Virus record (IMG/VR): IMGVR_UViG_3300046460_000404 | Span: 1 to 34,064 of that record | From: a virus | Length of the DNA stretch: 34,064 bases | Strand: one strand, 5' to 3' | Shown: positions 8,451-29,526 of the stretch, in pieces | How the letters are laid out: each line of letters opens with the position of its first letter | How positions within the stretch are numbered: the stretch's first letter is position 1 | Made by a program: the position numbers and the translations under genes | Notes under the pieces: generated by a model | Database searches by the model: none | Told to the model about the DNA's origin: nothing | What the model saw: only the letters and a program-made list of their open reading frames with translations

Positions 8451-8930
8451 ATGGGCCGTCCTTCCAAGTTCACCGCCAAGCTCGCTGAGGAGATTGTCGA
8501 GCGCCTCTCGCTCGGCGAGCCGATGGCTGCGATCTGCCGGGACATCGGCGACATCACGCCCAGGACGGTGCGCAACTGGATGGAGGCGGACGAGCAGTTT
8601 TCTGCCGCCATCGCCCGCGCGCGCGAGGATGGTTTCGACGCCATCGCCGACGAGTGCCTGTCGATCGCTGACGACAGCAGCGGCGACACCAAGGTGGTCG
8701 GTGAGGATAAGCGAGAAGTTTGCGACACCGAGTTCGTCCAGCGCTCCAAGCTCCGCATCGAGACCCGGCTGAAGCTCCTCGCGAAGTGGGACCCCAAGCG
8801 ATACGGCGAGCGGCTCGACCTGAACCATAGCGGATCGGTCAACACCCAGACCGACGAGCAGCTCGACGCGCGCATCGCTCTCCTATCGGCCAAGCTCGGG
8901 AGCGCGGATGACGCGGACCGAGAAGGCTGA
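8451..8930 (+). CDS. Terminase small subunit
   Basis: A 159-residue protein with a typical TerS beginning (MGRPSKFTAKLAEEIVERLS), then an HTH (EPMAAICRDIGDITPRTVRN) that would bind the packaging site. The middle (RSKLRIETRLKLLAKWDPKRYG) is a signature of phage small terminases of this type. It overlaps the large subunit start by 23 bp. It recognises phage DNA and starts packaging with TerL. Confidence 0.85.
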   Translation: MGRPSKFTAKLAEEIVERLSLGEPMAAICRDIGDITPRTVRNWMEADEQFSAAIARAREDGFDAIADECLSIADDSSGDTKVVGEDKREVCDTEFVQRSKLRIETRLKLLAKWDPKRYGERLDLNHSGSVNTQTDEQLDARIALLSAKLGSADDADREG

Positions 8931-9594
8931 GCTTCTCGCGCTCATGGAGGAGCGCCAGCGCCGCATCGATCGGCGACGGCTCTTCACCTATCGGCCCTAC
9001 GCCAAGCAGCGCGAATTCCACGCCGCCGGCCTGATCCACCGCGAGCGCCTGCTCATGGCAGGAAACCAGCTTGGCAAGACCTACAGCGGCGCGGCGGAGG
9101 CCGCGATGCACCTCACCGGCCGGTATCCGGACTGGTGGGAGGGGCGGCGTTGGGATCGCCCTGTTCGGGCCTGGGTTGGATCGAAGACATCCGAGGTCAC
9201 CCGCGACGGCGCCCAGCGGCTCCTAGTCGGCGAGCCCAAGGAAGAGGATCAGTGGGGTACGGGCCTGATCCCCGGCGATGACCTGCATGACTGGTCCCGG
9301 CGCCAGGGCATCCCGAACGCCCTCGACAATGTCGTGGTCAAACACGTGACCGGCGGGCGGTCCTCCCTCGGCTTCAAGTCCTATGACCAGGGCCGCCAGA
9401 AGTGGCAGGGCGAGACGCTCGACTTCGTGTGGTTCGACGAGGAGCCCGACGAGGAGATCTACACCGAGGGCCTGACCCGTACGAACGCCACCGGCGGCAT
9501 CGCCTGGCTCACCTTCACGCCGCTTCTCGGCATGTCCGATGTCGTCAGCAAGTTCCTGGAGGGCTCCGACATCGAGGCGCTGAAAGCCGCATGA
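8908..9594 (+). CDS. Terminase large subunit, ATPase half
   Basis: 228 residues holding the packaging ATPase domain: Walker A AGNQLGKT (51-58) and Walker B FVWFDEE with catalytic Glu178. The coupling motif region WLTFTP lies near 199. The ORF ends EALKAA with a TGA whose first two bases belong to the ATG of the nuclease half. Phage large terminases normally continue from this point into MTIEDAEHY and the nuclease in one chain of about 450-500 residues; here the sum is 471. Either a natural split subunit, a frameshift mutation or a sequencing error. No classical -1 slippery heptamer is seen at the junction. Confidence 0.85.
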   Translation: MTRTEKAELLALMEERQRRIDRRRLFTYRPYAKQREFHAAGLIHRERLLMAGNQLGKTYSGAAEAAMHLTGRYPDWWEGRRWDRPVRAWVGSKTSEVTRDGAQRLLVGEPKEEDQWGTGLIPGDDLHDWSRRQGIPNALDNVVVKHVTGGRSSLGFKSYDQGRQKWQGETLDFVWFDEEPDEEIYTEGLTRTNATGGIAWLTFTPLLGMSDVVSKFLEGSDIEALKAA

Positions 9595-10322
9595 GCCGTC
9601 ACGTCACCACGATGACCATCGAGGACGCCGAGCACTACACGCCGGCTCAGCGTCGCGAGATCATCGACAGCTACCCGCTGCATGAGCGCGACGCCCGCGC
9701 CAAAGGCATTCCGATCATGGGCTCGGGCCGCGTCTTCCCGATCGAGGAGGAGCAGATCATCTGCGATCCGGTCCCGATTCCGCGCCACTGGAAGCGGATC
9801 ACCGGCATCGACTTCGGCTGGGATCACCCCTTCGGCGCGGCCGGCCTGGCCTGGGACACCGACAACGACATCATCTACGTCGTGAATGAGTACGCGGCGC
9901 GCGAGACGACGCCCATCATGCATGCCGCCGCGGTGAAGGGTTGGGGCGACTGGATCCCGGTCGCCTGGCCCCACGACGGCCTGCAGCACGACAAGGGCTC
10001 GGGCGAGCAGCTCGCCAAGCAGTACCGCGCCCAAGGACTGAAGATGCTCACCGAAAAGGCGACCTTCAGCGACGGCTCCAACGGCGTCGAGGCCGGCCTG
10101 ATGGACATGCTCGACCGCATGCAGACCGGCCGCTGGAAGGTGTTCAGGACTTGCGGCGGCTGGATCGGCGAGTTCCGCCTCTATCACCGTAAGGATGGCA
10201 TCGTGGTGAAGCTGCGCGACGACCGGATCAGCGCCTCACGCTACGCGCTGATGATGCTCAGGCATGCCGCGACCAAGCCAAGCGTGGACCGCATGGTTCT
10301 ACCCAACTTCGGGGCAGTGTGA
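9591..10322 (+). CDS. Terminase large subunit, nuclease half
   Basis: 243 residues starting ATG 9591 inside the ATGA overlap. It contains the RNase H-fold nuclease of TerL: GIDFGWDHPF with Asp74 and Asp78, then WPHDG with Asp129. Near the start is MTIEDAEHYTPAQRREIIDS, the segment normally joined directly to the ATPase domain. The nuclease cuts concatemeric DNA at the start and end of packaging. The complete domains on both sides argue that both halves are functional or were very recently separated. The stop is followed by the 484-bp structured gap. Confidence 0.85.
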   Translation: MSRHVTTMTIEDAEHYTPAQRREIIDSYPLHERDARAKGIPIMGSGRVFPIEEEQIICDPVPIPRHWKRITGIDFGWDHPFGAAGLAWDTDNDIIYVVNEYAARETTPIMHAAAVKGWGDWIPVAWPHDGLQHDKGSGEQLAKQYRAQGLKMLTEKATFSDGSNGVEAGLMDMLDRMQTGRWKVFRTCGGWIGEFRLYHRKDGIVVKLRDDRISASRYALMMLRHAATKPSVDRMVLPNFGAV

Positions 10323-10364
10323 CCTTCCCCACAAGCTAGGCCATTCAGGCCTCCCTATGGGCAA

Positions 10365-10393
10365 TTGACGCGAACCGGATTCGCCTAGCTACC
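10365..10393 (+). promoter_or_regulatory. Possible promoter ahead of the structured RNA region
   Basis: TTGACG (10365-10370) followed after 17 bp by GCTACC (10388-10393). This resembles the Caulobacter housekeeping pattern TTGACG with a GCTA-type -10, though the spacing is longer than that consensus. It would drive the structured RNA and the portal-capsid genes. Weak evidence. Confidence 0.3.
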
Positions 10394-10463
10394 GAATTAC
10401 AGAGAAAGCGTGTGTTAAAGAGGCGCAGTTTCTGCCGCCACTTTCCGCTCTGGGACGTTCTTA

Positions 10464-10635
10464 TTTCTACGTGCCGCATGCACGTAGAAAGGAGGCGTTA
10501 TGGTCACCATAACAATGCCAGGACGTACATTCGTCCTGGCTGTTGCGGTCATCGTATTGATCGCAATGGCGCTTTAACGCGCGTTTTCTAGCGAACTAAG
10601 GGCCATCGGAGGTGCAACTCCGGTGGTCTGTTCGC
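10464..10635 (+). ncRNA. Highly structured RNA element with tandem hairpins
   Basis: Consecutive hairpins fill this stretch. H1: 11-bp perfect stem, TTTCTACGTGC/GCACGTAGAAA, 10464-10490. H2: 7-bp perfect stem, GTTATGG/CCATAAC, 10497-10513. H3: 9-bp perfect stem, GCCAGGACG/CGTCCTGGC, 10517-10540. H4: 9-bp stem with one G-T, TTGCGGTCA/TGATCGCAA, 10543-10566. H5: compound stem, GCGAAC/GTTCGC outside and CCATCGGAG/CTCCGGTGG inside, 10591-10635. Such density is not expected by chance. The arrangement suggests a structured transcript or cis-regulator between terL and portal. It contains a 25-codon reading frame, so it may be a structured mRNA. Known classes were not recognised. Confidence 0.5.
10500..10577 (+). 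CDS. 25-residue hydrophobic micropeptide inside the structured RNA
   Basis: ATG preceded by AAAGGAGG at ideal spacing. The product starts MVTITMPGRTF, followed by an uninterrupted hydrophobic stretch (FVLAVAVIVLIAMAL) to the stop, so a single membrane helix. The start codon lies in hairpin H2, and hairpins H3 and H4 lie in the coding sequence. Small hydrophobic peptides from highly folded mRNAs resemble type I toxins (Ibs, Fst-like) or small lysis/exclusion peptides. That comparison rests on architecture only. Confidence 0.45.
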   Translation: MVTITMPGRTFVLAVAVIVLIAMAL

Positions 10636-10723
10636 CATTCTAGCTCACCTAAAAACGGTCCGGACGCCGGCGAGGTTCCACGAATTTATGAACGTAAAAT
10701 CTTGAGTTCGTAAAAGGTAATAG

Positions 10724-10831
10724 ATGGCCGAGAGTCTAGACGAACGGACCATGGCCGGAGCATCTAGGCAATCCGCGCCGTTCGATAAGCCCCGACCATC
10801 GGGGCCATGGCCGAACCGCGCACGATTCTGA
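10724..10831 (+). CDS. Possible 35-codon leader ORF overlapping the portal start
   Basis: ATG with AAAAGG about eight bases upstream. The frame reads MAESLDERT and ends 25 bases inside the portal gene in another frame. It crosses the hairpin at 10789-10805 that masks the portal start. Ribosomes translating it could open that hairpin and couple portal translation. It may be chance. Confidence 0.3.
   Translation: MAESLDERTMAGASRQSAPFDKPRPSGPWPNRARF
10789..10805 (+). promoter_or_regulatory. Hairpin directly before the portal start codon
   Basis: Perfect stem GCCCCGA/TCGGGGC with loop CCA, ending one base before the portal ATG (10807). The only purine-rich sequence near the start, GGGG, is inside the 3' arm. 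The ribosome site would be masked unless the hairpin is opened, for example by translation of the leader ORF. Confidence 0.45.
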
Positions 10832-12810
10832 CTGACGAAGACTTCCTAGCCCTCGTCTCAGAGGAGCGTCGGCAGTCCATTGGCTTCGACAATGACGACG
10901 AGCTGAACGCCAACCGCGAGATGGCGCTGAACTACGCCAAGGGCGAAATGCCAGATGTGCCCTCGCTGAAGGGCCGCTCTTCCGCCGTCTCCACCGACTT
11001 CGCCGACGCCGTCGAAACCCTGATGCCGGATCTGATGGAGATCCTGTGCGGTGGCGAGGACGTGGTGACCTTCCGTCCGATCGGCGAGGAGGACGTCGCC
11101 GGGGCGCAGCAGGAGACCGATTACGTCAACCACGTGGTGATGAACGAGAACGCCGGCTGGCGGGTGCTCTACGCCCACGTGAAGGACGCGCTGCAGACCA
11201 AGCTCGGCATCACCAAGGTCTGGCCTGAGTACGACGACGTGGTCGAGGAGGAGCACTACACCGACCTGTCGGAGATGGAGGTGCAGATCATCTCCCAGGC
11301 CGAAGGCGTCGAGCTTGAAGTCACGGCCCGGACCGCCGACGACGCCGGCAATCCGATCTACGAAGTAACGATCCGCAGGACGCGCCAGAAGGGCCGCACC
11401 TGCATCATGGAGGTCCCACCCGAAGACTTCACGTTCGCCCGCGACACAGTCTCGCTGGCCAAGACCACCTATTGCGCCATGCGCACCCGGCCACGCGCCC
11501 AGCAACTGATCGCTGACGGCCACGACGCCGATAAGGTTGGAAAGCTGACACCCTACGGCACGCTCCGCGACGGCGGCGTCGAGACGGCCCGCGACAACGC
11601 CGGCGAGAACGACGGCGCCCTGGCTGTATCCCAGACCTCGCACAACCTTCATCAGGTCGAGATCGTCGAGCACATCATCCTGGTCGATGCCGACGGCGAC
11701 GGCCGACCTGAGCTCTGGCGCGTCGTCACAGGCAACGACGAAGCCGTGCTGCTGAAGAAGGAACGGATCGACGAGGTCCCGTTTGCGGTCTCGACGCCGT
11801 TCATCGTCACGCACCGCCTGCTGGGTCAGTCGCTGTACGACAAGGTCGGCGAGGTGCAGCGGATCAAGACCGCCCTGCTGCGCATCATGCTCGACAGCGG
11901 CTATTTCGCGATGAACCAGCGAGCGGAGGTCTCAGAGGACCAGGCGAACGACTTCACGCTGTCCGACCTCCTCAACTACGTGCCGGGCGCGCCCATCAGG
12001 TCCAAGACCGGTAACGCCGTCAGACCAATCAGCGCCGGCCAGCTCGGCTTCGATGTGTTCGGCGCCATGGAATACGTCTCCGTCATGGGCGAGCAGCGCT
12101 CCGGCGTCGTGCGCAACGCCCAGGGGCTGAACCCCGACACCCTGCACGACACCGCCAAGGGCGCGCTGGCGATGATCAGTCAGGCTCAGAAGCGGGTGCG
12201 GATGATCGCCCGCGTGTTCGCCGAGACTGGGATCAAGGACCTGTTCCTCCTAGTCCACGCGGTGACGCGCAAACATCCGTCGATGGCTGAAAAGGTGCGC
12301 CTGCGCGGCAACTGGACCGAGGTAGACCCTTCGACCTGGGGTTCGCGCAAGGACATGACGGTGGAGGTGGGCGTCGGCTCTGGCGGCCGCGAGCAGCAGC
12401 TTGTCGCGCTCGATCGGATCATGGCGACGCAGGAGAAGTTGATCGCCGAGCAGGGCGGCTTCGACGGCCCGTTCGTCACCAAGCAGAACATCTATGACAC
12501 GGCGCGAAAGCTGGTCCTGGCGTCCGGCGAGAAGTCGGTCGATCCGTTCTTCACTGATCCCGCCAAGGCGCAAGAGGCGCCCAAGGGTGAGCCGCCACCC
12601 GATCCCGCGATCGAGACGGCCAAGATCAAGGCGCAGGCCGACATCCGTATCGCGGAGATCAAGGCGGCGAGCGACGCCGCGAGCAAGGACAAGCAGATGG
12701 AAGGCGAGTTCAAGCTCAAGCGCTACCAGATCGACGTCGAGGCGCGGATGCAGGCGCTTGGAGTCGGCAACGGCAGCCAGCAGGTTGAATTCGGAGGGCA
12801 ACCGGGATGA
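10807..12810 (+). CDS. Portal protein (P22/SU10-like)
   Basis: A 667-residue protein of the large portal family of short-tailed phages. The N-terminus (DELNANREMALNYAKGEMPD; LKGRSSAVSTDFADAVETLM) and the later VSTPFIVTHRLLGQSLYD and NPDTLHDTAKGALAMI segments are typical. A long C-terminal helical barrel region (about 580-655) is rich in Lys, Ala and Glu. The portal is the ring at one vertex through which TerL pumps DNA. It overlaps the next gene by ATGA. The leader region before it is unusual (hairpin and leader ORF). Confidence 0.85.
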   Translation: MAEPRTILTDEDFLALVSEERRQSIGFDNDDELNANREMALNYAKGEMPDVPSLKGRSSAVSTDFADAVETLMPDLMEILCGGEDVVTFRPIGEEDVAGAQQETDYVNHVVMNENAGWRVLYAHVKDALQTKLGITKVWPEYDDVVEEEHYTDLSEMEVQIISQAEGVELEVTARTADDAGNPIYEVTIRRTRQKGRTCIMEVPPEDFTFARDTVSLAKTTYCAMRTRPRAQQLIADGHDADKVGKLTPYGTLRDGGVETARDNAGENDGALAVSQTSHNLHQVEIVEHIILVDADGDGRPELWRVVTGNDEAVLLKKERIDEVPFAVSTPFIVTHRLLGQSLYDKVGEVQRIKTALLRIMLDSGYFAMNQRAEVSEDQANDFTLSDLLNYVPGAPIRSKTGNAVRPISAGQLGFDVFGAMEYVSVMGEQRSGVVRNAQGLNPDTLHDTAKGALAMISQAQKRVRMIARVFAETGIKDLFLLVHAVTRKHPSMAEKVRLRGNWTEVDPSTWGSRKDMTVEVGVGSGGREQQLVALDRIMATQEKLIAEQGGFDGPFVTKQNIYDTARKLVLASGEKSVDPFFTDPAKAQEAPKGEPPPDPAIETAKIKAQADIRIAEIKAASDAASKDKQMEGEFKLKRYQIDVEARMQALGVGNGSQQVEFGGQPG

Positions 12811-18710: not shown

Positions 18711-20240
18711 GTGCGCTACCCGCTCGACATCCCGCCCGGCCTCGTTTTCGGCGAGACGGTCTTGGCCGCTCAAGGTCGATACACTGACGGAAGTCTCGTT
18801 CGGTTCGTCTCCACGGACAACGACCAGCCCGCGCGTCCTGAGATCATCGGCGGCTGGGAGTCGCTCACACTTGAGACGCTCTCCGGCGTCTGCCGCAACA
18901 CCTTCACGTGGACCGACCTCGCGGGGCGGCTGAACGTGGCGTTCGGCACGCATACGGGCCTCTATGTCTGGCGCGGCGGCGCACTGTTCGACATCACGCC
19001 TACCGGACTAGTCGCCGGGCAGGTCAATGGCACGCAGGGCCAGGGCTATGGCGTCGGCCCCTATGGCTCGGGCTTCTACGGACTTCCCGCGATCGGCGAG
19101 TATTATGCTCGGACGTGGAGTTTCGGAGCGCTGGGCGAGGCTTTGATCGCCTGTCCGCGGGGCGGGACCATTTATCAGTGGGCCAACGACACGGGTGTCG
19201 TAGCGGCCCCGGTCACCAACGCGCCAGCCAACGTCACCAGCATTCTTGTGACCGAAGAGCGGGCCGTCATGGCGGTCGGCTGCAACGAGGAGGTCTCGGG
19301 CGACTTCAACCCGCTGTGCATTCGGCACTCGTCGCTCACCGATGAAACCGTCTGGGCAACAAGCACCGACGACACGGCGCGCGAGAAGATCCTGGCGGGT
19401 GGCGGGCGTCTAGTCGGCGGCCTGAAGGTCGCGGCCAACAACATCGTTTTCACCAACAACCAGGCGTTCGTCGTCTCCTACATCGGCTCGCTGGACGAAG
19501 TGTATCGCTTCGAAAGCGTCGGCAACCAATGCGGCCTGATCGGCGCCAATGCCATGACGGCGGACAATCAGACCGCCTATTGGATCTCGCCCGACTATCA
19601 GCTGTGGGGCTACTCGCTTGGCGGCATCCCCCAGACGCTGACGACGCCATTCCGCAAGGATCTCGACGACTATCTGGCGCTATCGCAGCAGGACAAGATC
19701 GTCGTGTCGACGGTCAAGGCCTTCAATGAGCTCTGGATCTTCTACCCTGATAGCCGTGACGGAATGGAGAACAGCCGCGCGTTCTCGATGAATCTGAAAC
19801 ACGGCAGCCCGGCCAAGCACATTCTGGCCCGCACCGCGTTCGTCGACGCCAGCGTGGCGCGCTCGCCAATCGGCGCCACGGTCGACGGCACGGTGTACTG
19901 GCACGAGCGCGGCAACAGCGCCGATGGGGCGGCCCTGACGGGCTTTCTGCTCAGCGGCGCGCAGTACCTGGCGCCGGGCGGGGAGTTAGTCAGCTTGTCG
20001 TCGATCTGGCCCGACTTCAAAGGTCAGCAGGGCGCGATCAATCTGACGCTCCTGTGCCGTGAGCAGCCTCAGGACGATCCGGTGGAGATCGGCCCGTTCA
20101 CCATCCAGCCTTCGCAGTCCAAGCAGGACCTGCACACCGTGGCCAGGCTGATCGGGCTCAAGCTCTCGTTTTCGTCAGGGCCCGCCTACATGCGGATGGG
20201 GACGCCGGTCGTCGAGGGCCGCATCGTGGGTCGCCGATGA
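18711..20240 (+). CDS. Tail nozzle/DNA-stabilisation-like protein
   Basis: 509 residues from GTG 18711 (MRYPLDIPPGLVFGETVLAA opening). The repeated blades with WTDLAGRLNVAFGTHTGLYV, GEALIACPRGGTIYQWA and AYWISPDYQLWGYS fit a beta-propeller. This resembles the gp10-like nozzle that plugs the portal after packaging in short-tailed phages. Size and position between adaptor/fibre and ejection genes agree. It overlaps the next gene by ATGA. Confidence 0.65.
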   Translation: MRYPLDIPPGLVFGETVLAAQGRYTDGSLVRFVSTDNDQPARPEIIGGWESLTLETLSGVCRNTFTWTDLAGRLNVAFGTHTGLYVWRGGALFDITPTGLVAGQVNGTQGQGYGVGPYGSGFYGLPAIGEYYARTWSFGALGEALIACPRGGTIYQWANDTGVVAAPVTNAPANVTSILVTEERAVMAVGCNEEVSGDFNPLCIRHSSLTDETVWATSTDDTAREKILAGGGRLVGGLKVAANNIVFTNNQAFVVSYIGSLDEVYRFESVGNQCGLIGANAMTADNQTAYWISPDYQLWGYSLGGIPQTLTTPFRKDLDDYLALSQQDKIVVSTVKAFNELWIFYPDSRDGMENSRAFSMNLKHGSPAKHILARTAFVDASVARSPIGATVDGTVYWHERGNSADGAALTGFLLSGAQYLAPGGELVSLSSIWPDFKGQQGAINLTLLCREQPQDDPVEIGPFTIQPSQSKQDLHTVARLIGLKLSFSSGPAYMRMGTPVVEGRIVGRR

Positions 20241-27081: not shown

Positions 27082-27217
27082 CGGGTCTCCTTTGGCAGGC
27101 CCTCAGGCTAGGCGGAAAGGGTAAATATCGAGTGCTGGTTATCCGGCACATAAGATGCGTGGGTTATGGCCCACACCTTGCGACGGTCGCCCCGTGTTCA
27201 GTCACGGAGTGCCGGAA

Positions 27218-28033
27218 ATGCACACCTTCCAGGAAGCCGCCGAGTCCTACGTCCAGCACGGCGGCGAGGCGCGCTATCTCGGCGGGTTGGTGGATCACTT
27301 CGGGCCGCAGGACGTCGCCGCGATCACGCCCTTGGCGGTACGCACATCGGCGGCTCTGATTTATCCGAAGGCGTCGGGAGCGACCCTAAACCGGCAAGTC
27401 ATCACGCCAGGCAGGGCGGTCCTCTATCATGCTCATGAGCTCGGCTGGAGGATGCCGGCTCGTATCCGCCCATTTCCAGCGCCGAAGATGAGGAAGACGG
27501 TCCCTGCTAGTCGCCGCTGGCTCGAGGCCTTCATCGACCAGTGTGACAAGGATGGCCTGCCGCACCTAGCCGCATGCGTCTTGCTGATGAACTTGTGCGG
27601 CGCGCGGGTCTCGGAGGCAATCAACCTCCTCGGCGACCACGTCGATCTTCGTCGACGGACAGCCCTGCTGGTCAAGACTAAGACCGGACTGAACAGCCTT
27701 CGCTATCTGCCAGACCACCTCGTCGAGCGGATCCGCGACTTGGGCCTGGAGCCCGGCCAGCGCGTCTTCCGCTACACCTCCCGCTTCTCGGTTAACGAGC
27801 GGATTGGCGCAGTCTGCGAGCGGGCCGGGTTGCCTTATAAGTCCAGCCACACCGTGGGCCGCCACGCCTTCGCGACCAATGCCCTGAATGCCGGGGTAGG
27901 GGTCCGCGTCGCCATGGACGCCGGCGGCTGGAAGTCCTCGACGATCTTCCTCGAAACCTACGCTCATACGATCGACGCCGGCCGCACGGTCATGGACCGG
28001 TTCAACGCGATCCACCACGCAGACCAGTTCTAG
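27218..28033 (+). CDS. Phage tyrosine integrase
   Basis: 271 residues starting MHTFQEAAESY; GGAG eight bases upstream favours this ATG over the longer frame. N-terminal core-binding domain about 1-95. Catalytic domain: Arg130 in CGARVSEA, a Lys in VKTKTG, the His211/Arg215 pair in HTVGRH, Trp238 in GGWKSS (Trp as in Cre rather than His) and nucleophile Tyr248 in LETYAH. It would recombine phage and tRNA-Val attachment sites. Unusually for a temperate phage, it sits between tailspike and lysis genes and about 5 kb from the att site. Confidence 0.85.
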   Translation: MHTFQEAAESYVQHGGEARYLGGLVDHFGPQDVAAITPLAVRTSAALIYPKASGATLNRQVITPGRAVLYHAHELGWRMPARIRPFPAPKMRKTVPASRRWLEAFIDQCDKDGLPHLAACVLLMNLCGARVSEAINLLGDHVDLRRRTALLVKTKTGLNSLRYLPDHLVERIRDLGLEPGQRVFRYTSRFSVNERIGAVCERAGLPYKSSHTVGRHAFATNALNAGVGVRVAMDAGGWKSSTIFLETYAHTIDAGRTVMDRFNAIHHADQF

Positions 28034-29174: not shown

Positions 29175-29277
29175 CTCGACGCCAGCACCTAGTCTAAGTC
29201 ACGGAACAAAAGGCGAGCTTCACCATTCAAGCTCCACGGTGCGGCTCTGTCCCCTCGTCAGCACCGGCCTGCAAACT

Positions 29278-29311
29278 GGCCCGTCACCCCTTCTGGGGTG
29301 GCGGGCCTTTT
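29278..29311 (+). terminator. Intrinsic terminator of the lysis cassette
   Basis: 13-bp stem with one T-G pair (29278-29290 with 29295-29307), loop TTCT, then TTTT. It ends the rightward late/lysis transcript, 104 bp after the lipoprotein stop. Confidence 0.85.
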
Positions 29312-29316
29312 GCGTT

Positions 29317-29526
29317 CTAGCGCCGACGTGGAAGGGGCTTCACGGGTGCTGGGTTCCAGCTCCTGACGATTTCGCCCAAGACGGCTTGGGCGACCTTCTC
29401 GGGGTCCTTGCGGCCGATCGGCGCGCGATCCGACCCATATGCGCTAGAGACGCAGACTTCGCGGCCGTCGACTTCGAAACTCGCATTGTACTGCCGCCCA
29501 TGCTCGATGATGTGGATCGTCTTCAT
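29317..29526 (-). CDS. Hypothetical protein
   Basis: 69 residues starting MKTIHIIEHGRQYNASFEVD. A small two-to-three-strand domain (REVCVSSAYGSDRAPIGRKD) is followed by a helix (PEKVAQAVLGEIVRSW) and a basic Pro-rich tail. The longer upstream frame lies antisense to 29581-29862 and was rejected. Not recognised. Last leftward gene of the right-arm cluster. Confidence 0.55.
   Translation of the reverse strand: MKTIHIIEHGRQYNASFEVDGREVCVSSAYGSDRAPIGRKDPEKVAQAVLGEIVRSWNPAPVKPLPRRR

What the first reader, a model, noticed from the sequence alone, without database searches (positions are those of the whole stretch)
10464..10635. Tandem-hairpin RNA between terL and portal, hosting a 25-residue hydrophobic peptide
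At least four consecutive hairpins with 7-11 bp stems, plus a compound stem, occupy about 170 nt in a gap of an otherwise gapless operon. The start codon of a well-SD-equipped 25-residue membrane peptide is inside one stem, and two more stems fall in its coding region. GC is lower than in neighbours. It could be a structured ncRNA (even a packaging-related RNA, given its place between TerL and portal), a type I toxin-like mRNA, or a translational switch. No known class was recognised.
Basis: partly seen in the sequence, partly recalled or inferred. Interest (0 to 1): 0.75.

Follow-up and report, generated by a model that had tools for sequence, protein, structure and literature searches.

The report
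Inserted phage RNA folding into hairpins
A probably temperate phage, related to phages of Alphaproteobacteria, has picked up about 440 bases that encode a very tightly folded RNA, which also carries a well-formed gene for a 25-residue membrane peptide and looks most like the locked messenger RNA of a tiny membrane toxin, although nothing related to it could be found anywhere.

Summary
The hairpins are real and exceed the description. The folded unit is 10403-10635. Of 91 pairs, 12 are G-U. The 250-nt fold has z = -10.9, against -6.9 for the opposite strand, so the selected form is probably the + RNA. It is the window's strongest fold outlier. The 25-codon ORF also exceeds chance: randomised sequences keeping the structure give an SD-equipped hydrophobic ORF in 0.02% of cases, and randomised synonymous codons keeping the peptide never reach native stability (0 of 1000). 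The element lies in a ~440-bp insertion of foreign composition (GC 52%) absent from the closest relative; about 80 related portal-upstream regions hold nothing comparable. Rfam, Pfam, PHROGs, phage and plasmid records, IMG/VR scans and 385 alphaproteobacterial genomes gave no homolog, so covariation could not be tested. Packaging RNA is unlikely. Best reading: a moron encoding a structured, translation-limited mRNA for a small membrane peptide, working like a type I toxin mRNA. No antitoxin was found and toxicity is untested. A noncoding RNA with an incidental ORF is the main rival.

The parts
10323..10763 (+). inserted segment (moron-like) between the terL nuclease gene and the portal upstream motif
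   Evidence: L084, with portal 79% and capsid 92% identical, has only 39 nt between the terL stop and the portal start, and its DNA aligns again at window 10763. GC of the insert is 0.52.
10365..10391 (+). weak candidate promoter TTGACGC-N12-CCTAGCTA just upstream of the folded RNA
   Evidence: Scores 11 of 15 to a Caulobacter-type consensus recalled from memory. Not above background with a rhizobial-type consensus, and no E. coli-type site was found. Inference only.
10403..10420 (+). 5' arm of the closing helix P1 (18 bp, 3 G-U)
   Evidence: Mean pair probability 0.99; longest uninterrupted helix at that distance, not reached in 300 shuffles
10422..10439 (+). hairpin P2 (7 bp)
10459..10495 (+). 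hairpin P3 (11 perfect bp, extended to 15); its base holds the Shine-Dalgarno AGGAGG (10490-10495)
10490..10495 (+). Shine-Dalgarno AGGAGG, mostly paired
   Evidence: Unpaired probabilities 0.05, 0.86, 0.27, 0.03, 0.09, 0.27
10497..10513 (+). hairpin P4 (7-8 bp) containing the start codon
   Evidence: AUG unpaired probability 0.0
10500..10577 (+). ORF for the 25-residue hydrophobic peptide MVTITMPGRTFVLAVAVIVLIAMAL
   Evidence: (best 16-residue mean hydropathy 3.02)
10517..10540 (+). hairpin P5 (9 bp; 7 in the MFE structure)
10539..10570 (+). hairpin P6 (11-13 bp, 3 G-U)
10572..10589 (+). 3' arm of the closing helix P1; contains the stop codon of the ORF (10575-10577)
10591..10635 (+). compound 3' hairpin P7/P8 (6 + 12 bp, 3 G-U), no T tract behind it

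Best explanation
A probably temperate phage has acquired a ~440-bp foreign segment at a seam between terL and portal where relatives carry assorted small genes. The segment makes a + strand RNA of about 230 nt. Its ends are clamped by an 18-bp helix, its interior is a row of hairpins, and its 3' side is a strong compound hairpin. The RNA is also the mRNA of a 25-residue membrane peptide whose Shine-Dalgarno and start codon are buried in hairpins P3 and P4. The most likely working is that of a type I toxin mRNA: the full transcript is stable and poorly translated, and a cut or refolding that opens P3/P4 would release translation of a small membrane-active peptide, useful to a prophage for stability, exclusion of other phages or timing of lysis. 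Shown: the insertion, the predicted fold beyond chance, and the peptide signal beyond chance. Inferred: transcription, limited translation, the release step, membrane activity, and any antitoxin.
For: Fold z = -10.9 on the + strand against -6.9 on the - strand, with 12 of 91 pairs G-U, points to the + RNA as the selected molecule. Structure-preserving randomisation gave an SD-equipped ORF with a 16-residue stretch of mean hydropathy >= 2.5 in 0.02% of 20000 cases, and with ATG and a perfect SD in none. Synonymous-codon randomisation gave local MFE -22.1 +/- 3.7 against native -39.6, 0 of 1000. SD and AUG are paired. Opening the start region costs 22.5 kcal/mol in the full RNA and 13.1 after a 5' cut in the P3 loop. 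The insertion is absent in L084 and has foreign composition: GC 0.52, ORF GC3 0.56 against 0.86-0.90 for neighbours. An integrase gene makes a temperate life likely. A non-translatable primary transcript with a buried SD, and in some cases a 5'-3' long-distance helix, is described as a hallmark of type I toxin mRNAs (PMC6733600).
Against: No homolog of RNA or peptide was found, so there is no covariation and no conservation of the peptide. Start-region occlusion is only 1.3 SD above other genes of the phage (22.5 against 17.3 +/- 3.9), and the closing helix P1 adds nothing to it. No convincing promoter for the RNA or for an antisense antitoxin was found. There is no U-tract terminator on the + strand. 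The criteria of the peptide test were chosen after the ORF had been seen.
Confidence: 0.42

Rival explanations
1. A structured noncoding RNA (regulatory RNA, protein-binding decoy or anti-defence RNA) carried as a moron, in which the SD and hydrophobic ORF are incidental or vestigial.
For: The structure is far stronger than any start-site lock needs, and it extends well beyond the ORF on both sides (P1, P2, P7/P8). P1 does not change start-site accessibility. No peptide homolog was found.
Against: An SD-equipped hydrophobic ORF appears in only 0.02% of structure-preserving randomisations.
Confidence: 0.33
2. A dual-function RNA: an RNA regulator with a base-pairing or protein-binding role that also encodes a small peptide.
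For: Both the RNA structure (given the peptide) and the peptide (given the structure) exceed chance.
Against: No target or partner is known, and no homologs are available to separate the two functions.
Confidence: 0.12
3. A DNA-level element: single-stranded DNA hairpins or operators for recombination, replication or packaging, with the RNA fold a by-product.
For: Several stems are perfect palindromes also on the - strand (fold z = -6.9).
Against: 12 G-U pairs, including 3 of 18 in P1 and 3 of 12 in P8, hold only in the + RNA, and the + strand is 27 kcal/mol more stable. Repeats are not shared between hairpins.
Confidence: 0.06
4. A packaging RNA working with TerL and portal, in the manner of phi29 pRNA.
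For: Position between terL and portal, and a closing 5'/3' helix.
Against: Relatives with 70-75% identical TerL nuclease domains have no such RNA: a gap of about 0, or small protein genes there. The closest portal relative has an empty site, and the 50 related records searched, including these, held no copy. No Rfam match.
Confidence: 0.02
5. A leader-peptide or translational switch controlling the portal gene downstream.
For: The RNA is upstream of the portal gene, and the peptide is rich in Val, Leu, Ile and Ala (sequence).
Against: No terminator with a U tract on the + strand. 171 nt separate the RNA from the portal start. A repeated upstream motif, CAATCCGCGCC, immediately before portal looks like the gene's own signal and is kept in L084, which lacks the insert.
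Confidence: 0.05

Closest known systems
AapA/IsoA type I toxin mRNA of Helicobacter pylori (and, by analogy, hok)
   Same: Small hydrophobic peptide, stable folded mRNA, SD buried in local hairpins, and pairing of the 5' and 3' parts of the transcript (PMC6733600).
   Different: No antisense antitoxin was recognised here, the long helix does not itself mask the start site, there is no sequence relation, and the stems are denser.
ZorO / TisB type I toxin mRNAs
   Same: Peptides of 29 residues, and start sites held in mRNA structure (PMC8309996; PMC7708055 and PMC11449926, abstracts only).
   Different: Peptide unrelated by sequence; no standby site or sRNA identified here.
phi29-type packaging RNA
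   Same: 5'/3' closing helix, phage RNA, packaging-gene neighbourhood (from general knowledge of pRNA).
   Different: Related motors lack the element; no Rfam match; moron-like distribution.
Prophage type I systems (for example hokW-sokW, yonT/SR6)
   Same: Small toxic peptides carried by temperate phages, one of which facilitates phage release (PMC8621323 and PMC5848175, abstracts only).
   Different: Those have identified antitoxins; here there is none.

Membership tests
Type I toxin-antitoxin locus | mRNA encodes a small hydrophobic, membrane-spanning peptide with an SD | tested here: met
   25 aa, best 16-residue mean hydropathy 3.02, perfect AGGAGG 4 nt from AUG; 0.02% expectation under structure-preserving randomisation
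   SD and AUG paired, but the opening cost of 22.5 kcal/mol is only 1.3 SD above other genes of this phage; prediction only
Type I toxin-antitoxin locus | antisense or trans RNA antitoxin pairing with the toxin mRNA | tested here: inconclusive
   No promoter clearly above background on either strand; two weak terminator-like sites on the - strand
Type I toxin-antitoxin locus | sequence kinship with a known type I toxin family | tested here: not met
   No Pfam or PHROG family at E up to 10
Type I toxin-antitoxin locus | peptide is toxic when made, antitoxin relieves it | not testable with these tools
   Needs expression in a laboratory strain
Packaging RNA (phi29 pRNA-like) | present in phages sharing the packaging motor | tested here: not met
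   Absent from the terL-portal gap of TerL relatives and from the closest portal relative
Any Rfam 15 family | match to a covariance model | tested here: not met
   None at gathering scores over the window; none at E <= 5 for 10323-10806
Retron ncRNA | reverse transcriptase gene with the RNA | tested here: not met
   No RVT_1 in the 34-kb record; 3 of 14 control genomes rang
TnpB guide RNA | TnpB-like nuclease gene with the RNA | tested here: not met
   No PF07282 match in the record; IscB was not tested
Type III toxin-antitoxin RNA | tandem direct repeats of one RNA unit upstream of a toxin gene | tested here: not met
   Only two-copy repeats of 7-15 nt; the hairpins differ in sequence
Attenuator / leader-peptide switch | intrinsic terminator alternative downstream of the leader peptide | tested here: not met
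   No + strand stem followed by a T tract

The most novel reading that the evidence does not exclude
A previously undescribed class of compact phage RNA: a clamped wheel of five or six hairpins with a 3' compound hairpin that is at once a structured RNA and the message for a 25-residue membrane peptide, spread as a moron without detectable relatives.
Probability: 0.25. Interest if true: 0.72.

Novelty: new variant of a known kind. Interest (0 to 1): 0.5.

Why it matters
If true, it shows that temperate phages of this kind carry RNA-locked micro-genes that protein annotation and RNA libraries both miss, since neither Pfam, PHROGs nor Rfam sees it. It also offers a small, self-contained test case for how one sequence satisfies both an extreme RNA fold and a membrane peptide. 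The seam between terL and portal emerges as a place to look for such cargo.

Tried and rejected
Homolog searches that found nothing: blastn of the gap in phages and plasmids at E up to 10, only 25-36-nt chance matches; exact 18-mer in IMG/VR; pseudo-protein scan of the RNA with stops read through; degenerate peptide pattern, 12 hits, none with a related peptide; P8 apex pattern, 6 hits, of which three are the tip of terminator-like hairpins and none shares the rest of the RNA; blast over 50 related virus records and 18 genomes; covariance model from the single sequence over about 160 loci and 385 alphaproteobacterial genomes, one hit at E 1e-3 in an unrelated region and expected by chance at that number; peptide in the same 385 genomes, phage records, PDB, Pfam and PHROGs. 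Strong folds near terL in Sinorhizobium prophages (which covered 21401 of 29873 windows before its time limit) look like dispersed host palindromes, not this element. Rejected: packaging RNA, retron, TnpB guide RNA, type III antitoxin, attenuator; the membership table gives the reasons. The idea that the split terL is a sequencing error was rejected: 43 of 123 relatives are scored split or frame-changed, many with a coding start at the same place.

Full report
The window is a 34,064-base IMG/VR virus record with a head-and-packaging block (terS 8451-8930, split terL 8908-10322, portal 10807-12810, scaffold, capsid), a primase/helicase and an integrase at 27155-28033, so it is probably a temperate phage. 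Its TerL relatives in genomes are mostly from Alphaproteobacteria, with some Beta- and Gammaproteobacteria; no host genome is attached.

Observation. The sequence between terL and portal (10323-10806, 484 nt) folds as described, and more. The fold of 10440-10660 has z = -8.2. In 300 dinucleotide shuffles the longest such long-range helix was 16 pairs and usually 8-10. A sliding scan of both strands of the window ranks this region first. The opposite strand folds less well (-99.1, z = -6.9), and 12 of the 91 pairs are G-U. That is what one expects if the + strand RNA, not the DNA, is the selected form.

Anatomy. P1 10403-10420/10572-10589; P2 10422-10439; P3 10459-10495, whose base holds AGGAGG (10490-10495); P4 10497-10513, which holds the start codon; P5 10517-10540; P6 10539-10570; then the compound P7/P8 10591-10635. 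The ORF 10500-10577 reads MVTITMPGRTFVLAVAVIVLIAMAL, and its stop codon lies in the 3' arm of P1. There is no U-tract terminator on the + strand and no clear promoter. A weak TTGACGC-N12-CCTAGCTA at 10365-10391 is placed suitably for a start near 10400, which is an inference.

Is the peptide real? Two randomisations address this from opposite sides. Keeping the secondary structure and base-pair composition, an SD-equipped ORF of at least 15 codons arises in 9.5% of cases, but one with a 16-residue stretch of mean hydropathy 2.5 or more in only 0.02%, and with ATG and perfect SD in none of 20000. Keeping the peptide and randomising synonymous codons, none of 1000 reaches the native stability, locally or for the whole RNA; permuting the native codons gives 1 of 1000 for the whole RNA and 0 locally. 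So neither the RNA fold nor the peptide explains the other away. The hydropathy threshold was set after seeing the peptide, so the first figure is somewhat optimistic.

Origin. The closest relative with the region, L084 (portal 79%, capsid 92% identical), goes from the terL stop to the portal start in 39 nt, and its DNA becomes alignable to the window again at 10763. The window therefore carries an insertion of about 440 bp. GC of the insert is 0.52 against 0.64 overall, and GC3 of the ORF 0.56 against 0.86-0.90 for neighbours, consistent with foreign origin. Among relatives found by TerL this seam is either closed or carries various small protein genes. Among portal relatives found with an alignment, no region upstream of portal is nearly as structured (best z -2.7 against -5.0).

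Homologs. None were found in annotated phages and plasmids, by four DNA or pseudo-protein scans of IMG/VR, by blast in 50 related virus records and 18 genomes, with a covariance model on about 160 loci and 385 alphaproteobacterial genomes, or by peptide searches. Rfam gives nothing even at E <= 5. The planned covariation test therefore cannot be made, and this is the main weakness.

Mechanism. The best fit is a structured mRNA for a small membrane peptide. Work on AapA3 describes a non-translatable primary transcript as a major hallmark of type I toxin loci, with the SD held in local hairpins and sometimes a 5'-3' long-distance interaction that is removed by processing (PMC6733600); ZorO, a 29-residue toxin, likewise has a sequestered start site (PMC8309996). 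Here SD and AUG are paired. Opening the start region costs 22.5 kcal/mol, and 13.1 if the RNA begins in the P3 loop. This is higher than the mean for other genes of the phage (17.3 +/- 3.9) but by only 1.3 SD, and P1 does not contribute. The excess of structure is thus more than a start-site lock requires, which keeps a noncoding or dual role in play. No antisense antitoxin could be identified, so this is 'works like', not 'is', a type I toxin mRNA.

Packaging RNA is unlikely because phages with 70-75% identical TerL nuclease domains and those with related portals lack it. Retron and TnpB associations were tested and not met, and there is no repeat structure of type III antitoxins.

Verdict. 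My estimates are about 0.9 that a + strand structured RNA is real, about 0.75 that the peptide is real, and 0.42 for the toxin-like mRNA reading.

Noticed in passing
window 8908-9594 and 9591-10322: TerL is encoded as two genes, an ATPase part and a nuclease part, with an ATGA stop/start overlap at 9591-9594. 43 of 123 relatives were scored split or frame-changed there, several with other sequence inserted between the halves, so this is a recurrent natural arrangement rather than an error.
   Followed up: partly
window 10290-10319; L084 5637-5667: The last residues of TerL (MVLPNFGAV) are shared with the otherwise different TerL of L084: the best blastp match is the last 24 residues, 46% identical. 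TerL relatives with a portal at least 40% identical mostly end in similar tails (for example LVMPSFGAV, IIIPNFGAV), while those with about 30% identical portals mostly end in WKFTARKVV-like tails. The TerL tail may be a portal-docking peptide that travels with the portal gene.
   Followed up: partly
window 7856, 10764, 13529, 25131; L084 3229, 5673, 7969: A motif CAATCCGCGC(C), usually followed by a CCCC-containing stretch, is repeated, mostly just upstream of structural genes, all on the + strand (5 matches including one doubtful at 19862, 0.7 expected). Candidate late promoter or operator.
   Followed up: partly
window 10680-10711: A/T-rich imperfect inverted repeat ACGAATTTATGAACGTAAAATCTTGAGTTCGT inside the insert, followed by AAAAGG and a 35-codon ORF (10724-10831) overlapping the portal start; possibly a regulatory site or a second tiny gene.
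   Followed up: no
window 29201-29450: Second-strongest fold outlier region of the window after GC correction, + strand.
   Followed up: no
L065 2600-2920, L106 6630-6950, L095/L027 upstream of terL: Large arrays of palindromes with recurring units (GCATGTC/GACATGC and CGCGTCTAATAAGACGCGCGGCGC) in Sinorhizobium/Ensifer-type prophage loci near terL; they look like dispersed host palindromes, not like the window element.
   Followed up: partly
L237 8748-8764, L238 1621-1637, L239 2845-2861: The P8 apex CGGAGGTGCAACTCCG recurs as the tip of terminator-like hairpins in other phage contigs, perhaps a favoured stable tip.
   Followed up: partly
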